Assembly: GCA_003645255.1 (NCBI GenBank)
Contig: QNES01000013.1
Span: 1-47,052, forward strand
Direction of reading: 5' to 3'
DNA length: 47,052 nucleotides
Origin: Gammaproteobacteria bacterium
GTDB taxonomy: Bacteria; Pseudomonadota; Gammaproteobacteria; Beggiatoales; Beggiatoaceae
A program made the position numbers and the translations under genes. Shown one piece after another: positions 3,755 to 40,909 of the stretch (its first letter is position 1; each line of letters starts with the position of its first letter). The notes beneath the pieces are model-generated. The model had not been told where the DNA came from and ran no database searches. It saw only the letters and a list, made by a program, of their open reading frames with translations.

Positions 3755-3892
3755 CGTTATCAGTTATCAGCGAATAGTTATCGGTAAACAGTTGATAGTT
3801 ATCAGTTGCCAATGAACAATTATCAGTGAACAGTAAATAGCCCGTAAATATTTATTCATAAAATAATTGATAACAAATAACTGATAACTGAA
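3755..3892. repeat. TAACTGA-type repeats in both orientations before the PTS operon
   Basis: The block first carries the reverse-orientation form (TATCAGTTATCAG, from about 3758), then degenerate units, and ends with two forward units so that TAACTGATAACTGAAATG runs into the start codon at 3893. No Shine-Dalgarno sequence is present, so the repeats take up the usual ribosome-binding position. Confidence 0.8.
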
Positions 3893-4312
3893 ATGAGCGT
3901 AGGCATTTTATTGATTACCCATGATGATATTGGCTCAAGTTTGTTAGTCAGTTTGCAAAAAATGTTGGGTGCCTTGCCCTTACCCGTGAGAGTTTTACCT
4001 ATTCGTCATGAAGATGAGCCACTTGCATTTTGCTATCATGCGGAATCTCTTTGTCAAACTTTAAACGAGGGACATGGTGTGTTAGTGCTTACTGACCTGT
4101 TTGGTGCGACACCTTGTAATATTGCTTGTAGTTTAATTCATCATCATCGTGTACGAGTAGTAGCTGGAATCAATTTACCTATGCTGATTAAAATTATGAA
4201 TTATCCATTAGCTGATTTAGATACTTTAGCTAGTAAAGCCCTTTCCGGTAGCTGTCAAGGGGTACTTGATGTTAATTCCGTTTTTAGTGAACAGTGTAAT
4301 TGTGAATTGTAA
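3893..4312 (+). CDS. PTS EIIA component, mannose family
   Basis: A 139-residue cytoplasmic phosphocarrier domain of the mannose-type EIIA family. The phosphorylatable histidine is His10 in ITHDDIG near the N-terminus, and the DLFGATPCNIA segment is typical of the family. It stands alone, without the IIB, IIC and IID sugar-transport parts, and is followed by HPr and EI in the same orientation. This EIIA-HPr-EI arrangement is common in beta- and gammaproteobacteria and is generally thought to be regulatory and not a sugar importer. That no permease is present in this window is seen directly; the regulatory role is inferred. Confidence 0.9.
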   Translation: MSVGILLITHDDIGSSLLVSLQKMLGALPLPVRVLPIRHEDEPLAFCYHAESLCQTLNEGHGVLVLTDLFGATPCNIACSLIHHHRVRVVAGINLPMLIKIMNYPLADLDTLASKALSGSCQGVLDVNSVFSEQCNCEL

Positions 4313-4340
4313 ATTTTCACGCAAAAGTTTTGGCGTGAAT

Positions 4341-4368
4341 ACTGATAACTGAATAACTGATAACTGAC
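4341..4368 (+). repeat. TAACTGA heptads before ptsH
   Basis: Three exact TAACTGA units lie directly upstream of the HPr start codon, the last one only one base from the ATG. They occupy the ribosome-binding position and no purine-rich Shine-Dalgarno is visible. Confidence 0.85.
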
Positions 4369-11720: not shown

Positions 11721-11759
11721 TTAACTGATAACTGATAACTAATAACTGACAACTAATAC
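11721..11759 (+). repeat. TAACTGA heptads before trpE
   Basis: Five consecutive seven-base units, three of them exact TAACTGA, the others TAACTAA and CAACTAA, lead directly to the trpE ATG. The rest of the 211-bp gap after gph has a small stem (CCTGC/GCAGG near 11580-11600) but no leader peptide with tandem Trp codons. Confidence 0.85.
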
Positions 11760-34086: not shown

Positions 34087-36435
34087 CTATTTGGGTTTTC
34101 GTTTGATGAAAATATCTTCTATTAGTTTGGGTTCCAGAAGCTTTTTTTCTAATATTTTGGCTGCTTGGTATGAATAGGAGCCACTGATGGTTATTTCCCA
34201 AACATTGCCCGCTTTGTTAATGTTATTTTCAGTGAAATCCAGGGAGTCCACTTGGGAATAAAAAAGTTCGGGGTGCCTTGCCCTGAGTTTTTCAAGCTGT
34301 TTTTCAGCGTCCTGTCGCCGAGCATAAGAGCCTAGGATTATTATCTGATCGCCTGTTTCTAACTGTGATATTAAACGTGCCCATTTGGTGCTTGGGGAGG
34401 TTTCTCTATGTGCTATTTCAAGTTTGGCAACTTTTTGTTGGGCGAGTGTTTGTTCCAAAACCGTATTTTTCCCATTCACTTGTTCAAGCGTTTTTGTTAA
34501 AGATGCTTTTTGTTCCTGCGTGTGTTCGAGTTGTTTTTCAAGCAGTTCTTGTTTTTTGTTGCTTTGTTCAAGCGTTTCTTTTAGAACGGTATTTTGTTCT
34601 TCGAGGTGTTCAAGTTGTTCTGCCTTATATGCCTGTTTTGGGTGTGCTTGTTCTAATGCTTGTTCCACAATAGTTTGGTTAGTCGGCTCAAGTAATGGTT
34701 TTATTGCCCTTTTAATCGGTTGAGTTCCAAAAAAAAACCATAGGCTAAAGACTAATAGCAATATCACTAGCACCCAAAGTGGGTAATGTATTTTGGAGGT
34801 GCTGGTTTTTTGGGTTAGGTTAAAGTATTGCTCAAGAATGGTTTGTTCTATCTCTGCAATTTTTTTGTTTATACCTAGCTTTTTATAAATGCCTAGTGCG
34901 GTTTTAAAATCAGCTTTTGCTAATGCTGCTTCACCCCGTTGTTGCCATAATTTTCTGGTTTTAGCCGTGGCTTCTACTTGATGAGGTTCTAGGGTTAGGA
35001 CTTGTTCATATAGTTCAAGTTGTTGTGTCTCATTTTCGGTTTGTTGAGCCAGTGTGAGTAGGGCTTGTATTAAGCGAGAATTTGCGGTAAGTGGTTGATA
35101 ATAATACAGTTTTTCTAGCAATATTTTGGCTTCTTTGGCTTGTCCTTGAGCTAGTAGAATATCAGCGAGCAATTGATGAGCACCGAGATGATTAGGATTT
35201 AATGCAATCACTTCGCCTAATTGTTGGGCTGATAATTCTAGGTGTGTTTCTTTATGCAACGCTACTGCCGATTGAAAAAGTTTTTCGGCAACTGGATCTA
35301 TATGATCTAATTTGATTTGGATTCGTCGCAGGGGTTTATTTTCCCTGATCCAGCGGCGTATTAATTCGACTTGAAATTGATATCCTGCTTCAGTCAATGT
35401 GAGTAAATCCCAATCTTGTAGTAGGTGGGGTGCATTTTGTAATTCCCGAATAACAACGCGGATACCACTTTCATAGAGCTTTTTTTCCAGGGCTTTTTCT
35501 GTCATGACTTTACTACCCGCTTCAGCCATTGCTACCGCAACCACTTGTTCTGCCGGTGGTAAACCTTGAAATAACCATGCCATTTTGTTCCGACTGGCAT
35601 CTAAAACGTCAAAAATCACATTTTCTACATCGGCAGGTGTAGCTGTTGGTATTTTTTCTGATGTTTTGTAAGATTCATAAGCTTGTACCCAAACCTGGTA
35701 ACAGACTTGTTGAGTTAAATAAGGGTGACCATGTGTATATTGCCAAACACATTCTACTGCTTCATCCGGCCAATTTAGGCTATTATTTGCTTCAGAAAGA
35801 CGCACTAGCTTGGTGGTCTCTGTTTGATTGAGCAGTGATAAGCGTTTAGTGGGCGGAATACCTCTAAAAAGGGAAATCGTAATGGGATCAAGATCATCAA
35901 TATTACGCCCCCCTGTGAAAATAAACTTAAGGTGTTGGGAATCGTAATCTATTAATTGACGTATATAAGGAAAAAATGTCACCCCTGCCGATTCTATCTT
36001 GGGCTCTTCAAGCACATCAAATTCATCAAACAATAATACTAAAGCAGCATTTTCTGAAAGGTTTTGTAAGATGTTGGGTAACCAGCTATCTTGAAAGACT
36101 GCTTCCGGTTGTTCTTCTAAATCCGGTTCTGCTTGATTCAAGGTATTGGCAATACTTTTTGCTAATTCAGTGATTATTTGAGCTAAAGTAAGGCTTGCTT
36201 TATCTTGTAAGTCAAAGTAAATAGGATAATAATCTCCTTGGGTGGGTAAATAGGTTTTTAAATGTTGCAAGAGCGATGTTTTACCTATGCACCGTTGCCC
36301 GTATAATACGAGAGCATTTTTTTTTGCGTGGCGTAAAACGAGCATGATTTCACGCAAAATATGGGTTCGTTCGATAAAAGTGGTATGAGTCCCCACTGGA
36401 TTATCAGTAATATAAGGATTGATTGATTCAGACAT
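34087..36435 (-). CDS. AAA ATPase-TPR-membrane-coiled coil-SPOR-like protein
   Basis: A 782-residue protein with an unusual layout: an Orc1/Cdc6-like AAA ATPase (Walker A GQRCIGKT at 46-53, Walker B LLFDEFDV near 135), a winged-helix-like part, a TPR-like helical region (about 390-530), one membrane helix (about 549-570), a coiled coil with repeated LEQxxKKxxxLEKQLE-type heptads (about 590-670), and a C-terminal SPOR-like module with GSYARRQDAEKQLEKLRA and ISGSYSYQAAKILEKKL. SPOR domains bind denuded glycan strands at division sites. A cytoplasmic ATPase coupled to a periplasmic wall-binding end is inferred. Neighbouring ampD is divergent. No Shine-Dalgarno is seen. Confidence 0.75.
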   Translation of the reverse strand: MSESINPYITDNPVGTHTTFIERTHILREIMLVLRHAKKNALVLYGQRCIGKTSLLQHLKTYLPTQGDYYPIYFDLQDKASLTLAQIITELAKSIANTLNQAEPDLEEQPEAVFQDSWLPNILQNLSENAALVLLFDEFDVLEEPKIESAGVTFFPYIRQLIDYDSQHLKFIFTGGRNIDDLDPITISLFRGIPPTKRLSLLNQTETTKLVRLSEANNSLNWPDEAVECVWQYTHGHPYLTQQVCYQVWVQAYESYKTSEKIPTATPADVENVIFDVLDASRNKMAWLFQGLPPAEQVVAVAMAEAGSKVMTEKALEKKLYESGIRVVIRELQNAPHLLQDWDLLTLTEAGYQFQVELIRRWIRENKPLRRIQIKLDHIDPVAEKLFQSAVALHKETHLELSAQQLGEVIALNPNHLGAHQLLADILLAQGQAKEAKILLEKLYYYQPLTANSRLIQALLTLAQQTENETQQLELYEQVLTLEPHQVEATAKTRKLWQQRGEAALAKADFKTALGIYKKLGINKKIAEIEQTILEQYFNLTQKTSTSKIHYPLWVLVILLLVFSLWFFFGTQPIKRAIKPLLEPTNQTIVEQALEQAHPKQAYKAEQLEHLEEQNTVLKETLEQSNKKQELLEKQLEHTQEQKASLTKTLEQVNGKNTVLEQTLAQQKVAKLEIAHRETSPSTKWARLISQLETGDQIIILGSYARRQDAEKQLEKLRARHPELFYSQVDSLDFTENNINKAGNVWEITISGSYSYQAAKILEKKLLEPKLIEDIFIKRKPK

Positions 36436-37205: not shown

Positions 37206-38711
37206 TCATTCCTTAAAAAGCTGTAAACTTCTTGTCAACAGGGCAGCTTCATCGCCACGCGCTTTGGCTTTTGCGGATTCACGCCTTAATGCAAATTCTT
37301 CTGCTGAAGGGGCATTAGTAAATACATTACGTTGTAAGGTATTATCCAGAGCATCATATAGCCCGGCACGACGTGCCATAGTACGGTGTTGTTGTTCCAA
37401 GTGTAGTAGCGCACGGATCAGTTGAAAATGAATATTGTCATCATCGCCCTCTTCTTGACATAAATCTTTTAAAAGCGCAATGTCCTGGGGACTCCAAACT
37501 TGATTTTCATTGAGGCGCTTACCCGGATAAATTTTACCCATGACACGTTGATAGATTTTAGGTAAGTTATCCTCAATTTCATGTTTTTCCATTACCCATA
37601 GGCGACGGATTTCTTCTAAATCTTGCTCACTAATCAATTCAAGATTTTTAACCTCAGGGGGACCATTTTTTTGCACCGCTTGTTGTGCTTGCAATACTGC
37701 CGTTAATAATTTTTCACGGTAGGCTTGTGTATAAGGTCCATGCACTAAGCGCCCCGACACAATTTTTAAAGTACCCCCCATGCGCCGAAAATCACGATGT
37801 TGGCGATCTGTTTTGATATCAAGCCATTCATTACGAAGTTTCATCAAGGGGAGCATCCATTCTTTTTCTTCATCATTTTGAATCATCGCTTGCATTGATT
37901 TGTCTTGTTCAACCATCGTGCAAACATAGCAGCCAAAACGACTATCACCACAGCTAGGTGTACTGGTATCAACGACTAAGGGACATTCACCATCGGCGGT
38001 GGCACCTTGGTACATATTTAGAAGGGCTTTATTGTCAAAGCCCCAGGGGTTTTTTACCTGGGTGATATACATCCAAACATCATCGTTGGTCCAATCAGCC
38101 AGGGGGGTATAAATCCAGCTATTCGGTAAACTGGCATTGGTGGCAAGTTGTTCGCGGGTACTGCTTTTTTCATGTTTCAGCATATTGGCAGCGCGTACAA
38201 AACTTTCCGCTTTGCGGGTGCCGAGTACTAAAATAACTTGCCCGTTTTGCCGAGTCATATTGTTGATAAAACGATTAGAGGGATTAATTTTAAGGCGACT
38301 GGTACACCAGCGAAATTTAGGGCGAGGGGCTGGATAGCCACGCCCTATTAGATTAACCCAAAATCGATCTGGCACTTCTGGTGTTAGGCGATGTGGATAA
38401 ATGGGTAAATCTTGTTCAATAGCGGCTATTTTCATTGCTTTTAAAGAAGATTCTACCCATAAAGCGACAATGGGATTTTCAACTAGGGTATCTGTACTAA
38501 TGGCATAAACAGATTTGGTACGTTTTTCTTTAGGCAGTTTCGAGAGGGCATACCAAATTATTTGTAAAGTGGCGGTTGAATCCTTACCACCGCTATAACC
38601 GACTACCCAGGGAATATCATCACTTAAATAAAGCGTTTGAGTTTGTTTAATCAGGGCTGCAATAGCATTTTTAAAGCCTTTGGCAAAGGCTGTTTTACGT
38701 TGTTTATCCAT
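37206..38711 (-). CDS. dndC: DNA phosphorothioation ATP pyrophosphatase DndC
   Basis: PAPS-reductase-like PP-loop protein that helps place sulfur in the DNA backbone. The 501 residues contain the PP-loop SGGKDS at 40-45, ISTDTLVENPIVA, the segment RGYPAPRPKFRWCTSRLKI, and the cysteines in CGDSRFGCYVC expected for the iron-sulfur cluster. All match DndC closely. The usual partners (dndA or iscS-type desulfurase, dndB, dndD, dndE and the dndFGH restriction genes) are absent from the window, so the gene is an orphan here. It is intact. A DUF262/DUF1524 remnant lies beside it. Confidence 0.9.
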   Translation of the reverse strand: MDKQRKTAFAKGFKNAIAALIKQTQTLYLSDDIPWVVGYSGGKDSTATLQIIWYALSKLPKEKRTKSVYAISTDTLVENPIVALWVESSLKAMKIAAIEQDLPIYPHRLTPEVPDRFWVNLIGRGYPAPRPKFRWCTSRLKINPSNRFINNMTRQNGQVILVLGTRKAESFVRAANMLKHEKSSTREQLATNASLPNSWIYTPLADWTNDDVWMYITQVKNPWGFDNKALLNMYQGATADGECPLVVDTSTPSCGDSRFGCYVCTMVEQDKSMQAMIQNDEEKEWMLPLMKLRNEWLDIKTDRQHRDFRRMGGTLKIVSGRLVHGPYTQAYREKLLTAVLQAQQAVQKNGPPEVKNLELISEQDLEEIRRLWVMEKHEIEDNLPKIYQRVMGKIYPGKRLNENQVWSPQDIALLKDLCQEEGDDDNIHFQLIRALLHLEQQHRTMARRAGLYDALDNTLQRNVFTNAPSAEEFALRRESAKAKARGDEAALLTRSLQLFKE

Positions 38712-38758
38712 TTTTTTTGTTTTTCAGTTTTGAAGACAAGTTTTTTCTAAAGCTAACT

Positions 38759-38847
38759 AATAGCTACATGGATTGTATATAAAAAAGGATTTAAACCGGA
38801 TACCACCACATTCCAATCCCTTCTTATATACAATCCCTGTAGTTATT
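38759..38847. repeat. 89-bp element with 24-bp inverted ends
   Basis: The left arm (38759-38782, centre GGATTGTATATAA) is inverted at 38824-38847 (TTATATACAATCC centre) with two mismatches over 24 bases. The interior adds a GGATT/AATCC pair. It lies directly upstream of dndC and has no coding capacity. Confidence 0.7.
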
Positions 38848-39063
38848 ATTATCAGGCTAAAAATTTAAACATCAAGTTTAAACATTATAGTCTATAGCGT
38901 TTTTCGTTATATGTATTTAACTCAAAAGGGAAATGCTATATCTATAATATACCCATTAAAAAAAACAATTAGCCAATTTTTTTATAGATTTGAAAAAACT
39001 CGGTTTCTAGGAACAATTTTATAAAAGTTATCCAGGAATCCGTTGTAAGTTTCCTTATAAGAT

Positions 39064-39169
39064 AAGTAGGTACACATAAATATTTTAACAGGTTATTTTC
39101 TGCTAAAGCACTGATTATTAACGGATTTCTAAAAATAGAATATGTTAAAATACTTTTGAGTACCTACTT
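39064..39169. repeat. AAGTAGGTAC element, complete copy (106 bp)
   Basis: AAGTAGGTAC at 39064-39073 is exactly inverted as GTACCTACTT at 39160-39169, and the match continues inward to TATTTTAACA/TGTTAAAATA, about 27 bases in all with four mismatches. Related to 1953-2079, and one arm recurs at 39938-39958. Confidence 0.7.
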
Positions 39170-39182
39170 AAATCGGTATAAT
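39156..39182 (+). promoter_or_regulatory. Candidate sigma70-type promoter
   Basis: TTGAGT (39156-39161) and TATAAT (39177-39182) are 15 bases apart, shorter than ideal. The -35 part lies in the end of the adjacent repeat element, so insertion of the element may have supplied it. The sequence around the -10, AAATCGGTATAATGTCTA, recurs near 19747. Confidence 0.35.
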
Positions 39183-39211
39183 GTCTATTGTTAACGTGCA
39201 AAGGGGATAAA

Positions 39212-39846
39212 ATGTCTTTTATGTCCATGGAAGCAATTAATCAAACATTCCAGGAAATGATGAGTAATGCTGTAAAATACCAAATTCCGAGATTTCAGCG
39301 GAATTACATTTGGAAAGAGGAGCTATGGGAAGATTTATGGAGTGATATTGAAACATTACCAAAAGAAAAATATCATTATATGGGATATACGGTGTTGTCT
39401 ATTCGTTATAATGTGATATGCCATTTTTCTCCCAGCGAACAGGCGCAAAAATATAATCAAATCGCGATCAAAGTTCATGAAAAAGCATTTAAGCGTGCAA
39501 GCCTTATGAAAAACAGTGATTTATTTAAAAACTTATATCCGGATGATAAGATATTCTTTAATGCTTTTGAGTTTTACAAAATGCCCAGTCGTCAAACCTC
39601 TAAAAAAATTCGTTTTGGCAGCCATTGAAAGTTATTTGGATCATAAAACGGCAGAAAATGATATTTCATTTAGAGCATATATGCCCTTATAAGCCTAATG
39701 AAATTTGGAGCAATGCGTTTGGCGAAGGCTATGATGAAGTTAAGGATCGTATTGGCAATATGCTTTTACTGCCAAAACGGGTAAACAAAGATGTAGATAC
39801 CAAGCCGTTCATAGAAAAAAATGTTTGCCCTTGCCGTTTTTTTTGA
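39212..39846 (+). pseudogene. Decayed DUF262/DUF1524 nuclease (GmrSD or SspE type)
   Basis: The start (ATG 39212, preceded by AAAGGGGATAAA) encodes a typical DUF262 N-terminus: QIPRFQRNYIWKEELWEDLW and YHYMGYTVL. The family's central DGQQRLTT part is missing. Further on a DUF1524-type HNH region is recognisable in pieces from different frames: KFVLAAIESYLDHKTAEND in one frame (about 39591-39650), then HLEHICPYKPNEIWSNAF and RIGNMLLLPKRVNKDV in another. At least two frameshifts and an internal deletion are therefore needed. DUF262-DUF1524 proteins act as nucleases against modified or unmodified DNA; this one cannot be functional. Confidence 0.75.
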
Positions 39847-39887: not shown

Positions 39888-39988
39888 TAATGGCTCTTAA
39901 AAAATACTCTTTATTGAAGAAATAGTCTTTTTAAAAATGTTAAAATACTTTTTCGTACATAAATAACTTTTAGGGGAATTTTTTAATT

Positions 39989-40318: not shown

Positions 40319-40342
40319 GATAACTGGTAACTGATAACTGAA
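40319..40342 (+). repeat. TAACTGA heptads before hscB
   Basis: Units TAACTGG, TAACTGA (and a leading partial) run from the iscA stop to the hscB ATG, replacing a Shine-Dalgarno inside an operon whose later genes (fdx, iscX) keep classical sites. Confidence 0.85.
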
Positions 40343-40876: not shown

Positions 40877-40909
40877 ATGACTGAATAACTGATGACTGAA
40901 TAACTGATG
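40877..40909 (+). repeat. TAACTGA/TGACTGA heptads overlapping the hscA start
   Basis: Units TGACTGAA and TAACTGA alternate and the last unit contains the start codon itself (TAACTGATG), showing how closely the repeats are bound to start sites. Confidence 0.85.

What the first reader, a model, noticed from the sequence alone, without database searches (positions are those of the whole stretch)
37206..39846. Orphan dndC beside a ruined DUF262/DUF1524 nuclease
Seen: an intact dndC with PP-loop and cluster cysteines, no other dnd gene within the window, and next to it a frameshifted, internally deleted DUF262-DUF1524 gene. Known: Ssp-type phosphorothioation systems pair a DndC-like enzyme (SspD) with SspE, a DUF262/DUF1524 protein. 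Inference: the pair may be what is left of a phosphorothioate modification-restriction island; conservation of dndC would then need another use or partners elsewhere.
Basis: partly seen in the sequence, partly recalled or inferred. Interest (0 to 1): 0.6.

Follow-up and report, generated by a model that had tools for sequence, protein, structure and literature searches.

The report
Scattered DNA-sulfur genes, not an orphan
A gene for putting sulfur into the DNA backbone looks orphaned in this stretch, but its partner genes sit intact at two other places in the same giant-sulfur-bacterium genome, and the broken nuclease gene next to it is an unrelated dead neighbour.

Summary
In detail: an intact dndC (37206-38711, minus strand) lies 0.5 kb from a wrecked DUF262-DUF1524 gene, and no other dnd gene is in the window (which is a whole contig). 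The island reading is mostly wrong. The same genome carries intact dndA (contig C61) and dndD-dndE (contig C5), all above curated cut-offs. So it holds a complete DndACDE sulfur-modification set split over three loci at least 16-26 kb apart, among housekeeping genes. No DndB, DndF, DndH, SspB or intact DUF262 protein was found. In the surrounding Beggiatoaceae-type clade (Thiomargarita, Parabeggiatoa, Marithrix, Thioploca) the same four genes share one origin, co-vary, and are scattered differently from genome to genome; one Marithrix has all four on four large contigs. Outside the family, 65 of 66 sampled dndC loci have dndD next door. DndC is under strong purifying selection (omega 0.08-0.10). 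The nuclease remnant is a decayed copy of a standalone HEC-06-type gene, with intact copies 73-86% identical in relatives, none on a contig that carries dnd genes. Adjacency is best read as chance. Verdict: a known system in an unusual, operon-free, restriction-free form; moderately interesting.

The parts
37206..38711 (-). dndC: PP-loop ATP pyrophosphatase / Fe-S sulfurtransferase of DNA phosphorothioation, intact, 501 aa
   Evidence: TIGR03183 674 bits, cut-off 290; 135/137 invariant residues kept; omega 0.095 in genus, 0.083 in clade
39188..39625 (+). Remnant of a HEC-06-type DUF262-DUF1524 gene, first frame: N-terminal 65 residues joined by an internal deletion to profile position 377 onward
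   Evidence: GmrSD_N 6.7e-10; HEC-06 1.6e-37; 78-83% aa identity to intact L171 in two stretches; deletion junction about 39391-39397
39640..39843 (+). Remnant continued in a second frame after a net frameshift: DUF1524 core; the C-terminal ~45 residues are lost
   Evidence: GmrSD_C 1.7e-8; HEC-06 profile 469-524; alignment to L171
39989..43155 (+). iscA-hscB-hscA-fdx: the second half of the isc operon, cut off from iscRSU (contig C9); context showing that operons other than dnd are also split here
38758..38848 (.). Palindromic dispersed repeat (34-nt arms, 88% complementary) 46 nt upstream of the dndC start; a genome-wide repeat family, context only

Best explanation
This dndC encodes the sulfur-transferring subunit of a complete DNA phosphorothioation set (DndA-DndC-DndD-DndE) whose operon has been broken up. 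DndA (contig C61) would take sulfur from cysteine and load the Fe-S enzyme DndC (this window); DndC with the ABC-type ATPase DndD and the DNA-binding DndE (contig C5) would place sulfur in the DNA backbone at specific sites, without a cognate DndFGH restriction complex. Shown: all four genes are present, intact, single-origin, co-inherited and under purifying selection, at three separate loci. Inferred: that they are expressed, assemble and modify DNA. The adjacent DUF262-DUF1524 remnant is a separately acquired, decayed HEC-06-type defence gene and plays no part.
For: Own genome: DndD 620 bits and DndE 120 bits on C5, DndA 516 bits on C61 (cut-off 480), one DndC. dndD-dndE lie between lptC/kdsC and a nuoL-like gene. 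Invariant residues kept: DndC 135/137, DndD 67/70, DndE 15/15. Family of 43 genomes: 20 with DndC all have DndD; DndE in 18 of those 20, the two without it being draft genomes, one only 59% complete. Operon scattering. One clade each for C, D, E and A, support 96, 100, 97 and 99; distance correlations C-D 0.95, C-A 0.95, all Mantel p <= 0.001. On the rpoB tree the main dnd type fits one gain and one loss. Omega: C 0.083-0.095, D 0.154-0.159, A 0.104, E 0.082-0.182, rpoB 0.076-0.138. The isc operon is split too, so operon break-up here is not specific to dnd.
Against: No transcript, protein or phosphorothioate data. DndB was not found, but it is not essential for modification (PMC8569181). The genome is a draft (313 contigs), although the flanks of each dnd locus are long enough to exclude adjacency. 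The two same-genus genomes showed no DndA-type desulfurase, so DndA may be dispensable, with IscS serving instead as in E. coli (PMC3519819).
Confidence: 0.83

Rival explanations
1. One reading: dndC and the DUF262-DUF1524 remnant are what is left of an Ssp- or Dnd-type modification-restriction island.
For: They are neighbours; DUF262-DUF1524 effectors of phosphorothioate systems exist (SspE; DndI, PMC11662687); the closest solved structure to the intact relative is DndI 9JFL (1.5e-17); about 8 of 66 outside dnd loci have a DUF262-DUF1524 gene, whole or cut by the locus edge, within 8 kb.
Against: The remnant falls, with support 97-100, in a clade of standalone genes, and a 100%-supported branch separates that wider clade from the dnd-linked actinobacterial ones. 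The intact close copies lie on contigs without dnd genes and also occur in dnd-negative genomes (G035, G042, G013, G022, G004). The plasmid relatives looked at stand alone or sit beside type I restriction genes. SspB is absent from the genome. dndC is not decaying.
Confidence: 0.06
2. DndC has left DNA phosphorothioation and serves another sulfur-transfer job (for example on RNA or a cofactor), which is why it stands alone.
For: It is physically unlinked from dndD/E; it sits near isc genes in this window.
Against: No dnd-positive genome in the family has DndC without DndD. C-D and C-A distances correlate at 0.95. All but 2 of 137 DndC invariants are kept. The isc neighbourhood is not conserved even in the same genus.
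Confidence: 0.06
3. The set is a dead or dying passenger: genes still intact by recency but no longer used.
For: Loss of the operon, of DndB and of restriction genes; decayed extra fragments of dndC or dndD in some relatives; complete loss in one sub-clade (g7).
Against: Purifying selection as strong as or close to rpoB's across the clade; intact reading frames in all 17 main-type DndC genes.
Confidence: 0.05

Closest known systems
DndACDE DNA phosphorothioation modification system (TIGR03235, TIGR03183, TIGR03185, TIGR03184)
   Same: All four subunits present above curated cut-offs, with catalytic and invariant residues conserved
   Different: Genes lie at three loci instead of one operon; no DndB match; no DndF or DndH
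Dnd systems of Cyanobacteria with disordered operons (PMC8569181)
   Same: Disordered dnd gene order and no dndFGH, reported there for Nostocales
   Different: A separate gammaproteobacterial lineage; scattering traced here within one clade from C-D-E neighbours to four separate loci
HEC-06 candidate defence protein (PADLOC PDLC04154), single-chain GmrSD-like DUF262-DUF1524
   Same: The remnant and its intact relatives match this profile best (up to 700 bits for the intact copy)
   Different: The window copy has an internal deletion, a frameshift and a truncated end
DndI (PDB 9JFL; IscS-DndBCDE-DndI, PMC11662687)
   Same: DUF262-DUF1524 architecture; nearest solved structure to the intact relative
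   Different: Only 67 bits; DndI is dnd-linked, the remnant's clade is not
SspE of the SspABCD system
   Same: Shared DUF262 and DUF1524 domains
   Different: Much weaker profile match than HEC-06 (67 against 700 bits for the intact relative); no SspB in the genome

Membership tests
Dnd phosphorothioate modification system | DndC equivalog with PP-loop and Fe-S/transfer cysteines | tested here: met
   674 bits against cut-off 290; invariants kept, including C136, C243, C254, C261, C264
Dnd phosphorothioate modification system | DndD ABC-type ATPase in the same genome | tested here: met
   C5:38804-40771, 620 bits
Dnd phosphorothioate modification system | DndE in the same genome | tested here: met
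   C5:38334-38738, 119.6 bits against cut-off 71.85
Dnd phosphorothioate modification system | Cysteine desulfurase DndA or IscS | tested here: met
   DndA on C61 516 bits; IscS on C9 760 bits
Dnd phosphorothioate modification system | Genes in one operon (usual, not strictly defining) | tested here: not met
   Three contigs, minimum separations 16-26 kb (from contig positions)
Dnd phosphorothioate modification system | Phosphorothioate in the DNA | not testable with these tools
   Needs mass spectrometry or a peracid-cleavage gel
DndFGH restriction module | DndF and DndH present | tested here: not met
   No DndF over cut-off and no DndH in 43 genomes; DndH positive control rings in G047; DndF had no positive control and DndG was not searched
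Ssp system (SspABCD-SspE) | SspB (DUF4007) in the genome | tested here: not met
   No PF13182 match in G000; matches do occur in G030, G031 and G042. That SspB carries DUF4007 is from my own knowledge
Ssp system (SspABCD-SspE) | SspC and SspD in the genome | not tested
   No separate search; DndC scores only 33 bits on the SspD profile
HEC-06 / single-chain GmrSD-like protein | DUF262 plus DUF1524 in one chain, best match HEC-06 | tested here: met
   For the ancestral gene. The window copy itself is a pseudogene
DndI | DUF262-DUF1524 gene linked to dndBCDE | tested here: not met
   No dnd linkage in the remnant's own clade

The most novel reading that the evidence does not exclude
In this clade of large sulfur bacteria, DNA phosphorothioation has been freed from its mobile, restriction-coupled operon and has become a vertically inherited, housekeeping-like chromosomal function (for example redox protection or epigenetic marking), with each gene scattered independently and still kept.
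Probability: 0.4. Interest if true: 0.65.

Novelty: new variant of a known kind. Interest (0 to 1): 0.42.

Why it matters
Phosphorothioation is usually treated as a mobile defence cassette. A lineage that keeps all four modification genes for a long time after losing operon linkage and, as far as tested, DndFGH restriction gives a natural test of whether phosphorothioate has a host function beyond defence. It also warns that dnd annotation by gene neighbourhood will miss such systems or call them orphan.

Tried and rejected
Ssp origin of the pair: no SspB, and the remnant is HEC-06-like. dndC tied to the isc genes: isc is itself split and dndC has other neighbours in the same genus. The palindrome upstream of dndC as a dnd-specific mover: it is a genome-wide repeat, 1.25 arm matches per 100 kb in 400 kb of this genome and about 10 per 100 kb in G029. 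Association of HEC-06 with dnd across genomes: strong HEC-06 matches in 7 of 21 dnd-positive and 5 of 22 dnd-negative genomes, counted by hand, no evident link. Rfam: nothing between 36400 and 41000. Literature: no paper in the library links Beggiatoa or Thiomargarita with phosphorothioation.

Full report
What is there. The window is the whole of contig C13 (47,052 bases) of a 4.41 Mb, 313-contig, 96.7% complete genome. dndC at 37206-38711 (minus) is a full-length DndC (TIGR03183, 674 bits, cut-off 290). Of 137 positions that are at least 97% conserved in 66 DndC proteins from outside the family, 135 are kept, among them the PP-loop residues S40-T46 and cysteines 136, 243, 254, 261 and 264. 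About 480 bases away, on the other strand, lies a wrecked DUF262-DUF1524 gene in two frames.

dndC is not an orphan in the genome. DndD (620 bits) and DndE (120 bits) are intact and adjacent on contig C5, between lptC/kdsC and a nuoL-like gene. A DndA equivalog (516 bits, cut-off 480) is on contig C61, and ordinary IscS is on C9. The flanks on each contig put dndC at least 26 kb from dndD and at least 16 kb from dndA whatever the contig order (my arithmetic from the positions). No DndB, no DndF over cut-off, no DndH and no SspB-type DUF4007 was found; the DndH model does ring in a known dnd genome. The HEC-06 search found no DUF262-DUF1524 protein in this genome other than the remnant.

Relatives. 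Named records place the family with Thiomargarita, Parabeggiatoa, Marithrix and Thioploca. Of 43 family genomes, 20 have DndC over cut-off; all of them have DndD, and 18 have a DndE match. Three genomes (G016, G020, G021) carry a divergent second type (36-39% identity); the other 17 plus G031 (DndD and DndE only, 80% complete) form the main type. Gene order in the main type ranges from C-D-E neighbours with dndA beside dndC (G038, G039), through C-D without E (G030), C-E without D (G032), D-E without C (own genome, G033, G034, G007, G008), and spaced genes on one contig (G040, a one-contig genome; G041), to four genes on four large contigs in Marithrix (G027, G028). Outside the family dndD directly follows dndC in 65 of 66 sampled loci. 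That sample is the set closest to the query, not a random one.

Origin and maintenance. Trees of DndC, DndD, DndE and DndA each put the main-type sequences in one clade (support 96, 100, 97, 99). Distances among genomes correlate between C and D (0.95), C and A (0.95) and more weakly with rpoB (0.51-0.73), all Mantel p of 0.001 or less. On an rpoB tree the main type fits one gain with one loss in the five-genome group g7 (my reading). Codon-model omega is 0.083-0.095 for dndC, 0.154-0.159 for dndD, 0.104 for dndA and 0.082-0.182 for dndE, against 0.076-0.138 for rpoB. These genes are kept, not decaying. Unlinked genes cannot travel together on one short island, so I infer one acquisition followed by vertical descent and operon break-up.

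Break-up is not special to dnd. In this genome iscRSU is on C9 and iscA-hscB-hscA-fdx is in the window, while Marithrix keeps the whole isc operon together; in G034 unrelated genes follow iscU, and in G040 a gap of about 2 kb separates iscU from iscA. The nearness of dndC to isc genes therefore says little; in G033 and G034 dndC sits beside ftsK-type and AAA ATPase genes.

The remnant. It is 83-86% identical in DNA to an intact 571-aa gene in G031 and 75-84% to intact genes in the two same-genus genomes. About 930 nt are deleted near 39391-39397, with a net frameshift and a lost C-terminus. The intact relative scores 700 bits on HEC-06 and 67 on the best SspE model. In a tree the remnant groups with these genes (support 94-100) inside a clade that a 100%-supported branch separates from DUF262-DUF1524 genes sitting next to actinobacterial dnd operons. 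The contigs that carry the close intact copies hold no dnd gene, and plasmid relatives stand alone or beside type I restriction genes. Caveat: DndI, the nearest solved structure (1.5e-17), is a dnd-coupled nickase (PMC11662687), so the wider family does contain phosphorothioate-coupled members.

Conclusion. Shown: a complete, intact, dispersed DndACDE gene set of single origin in the clade, without the restriction genes tested. Inferred: that it modifies DNA. The pair in the window is a chance neighbourhood. Disordered dnd clusters without dndFGH were already reported for Cyanobacteria (PMC8569181), and decoupling of modification from DndFGH is described in PMC10853773; an independent gammaproteobacterial case with the scattering traced step by step is, as far as the held library shows, not described.

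Noticed in passing
window 3878-4367, 11722-11749, 40328-40341, 40886-40907: TAACTGA heptamer repeats, 30 in the window against about 6 expected, including just upstream of hscB and hscA; a feature already described for marine Beggiatoaceae (PMC4679880).
   Followed up: partly
window 38758-38848; also L073 18772-18958, L080 4266-4288, L221 6336-6358: A palindromic dispersed repeat that lies beside several dnd genes in the family but is genome-wide. In G025 two same-orientation copies flank an intact HEC-06 gene (L179 965-987 and 2901-2923).
   Followed up: partly
window 39139-39171 and 39934-39966: Imperfect 33-nt direct repeat (82%) on either side of the HEC-06 remnant.
   Followed up: no
L293 538-5628 (G000 contig C42): rpoB of this genome has an open frame of 1696 aa with a large insertion between Rpb2_6 and Rpb2_7 and no Pfam match in it; long rpoB frames also occur in G033, G034, G023, G016, G020 and G021.
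   Followed up: partly
G032:C235 and C491, G033:C465: A second, divergent DndD-like gene (293-316 bits), in G032 followed by a weak DndE-like gene; possibly a CxC-ATPase-type system separate from the dispersed set.
   Followed up: no
L082 9998-10201 (G027), L023 (G007:C63), G034:C316:8695-8880, G013:C231:5361-5657: Short extra dndC or dndD fragments, one (43 bits) in the dnd-negative group g7, which would fit past presence and loss.
   Followed up: no
window 34087-36435 minus: 782-aa protein with an N-terminal AAA/STAND-like ATPase, TPR repeats and a weak SPOR-like C-terminus, next to ampD.
   Followed up: no
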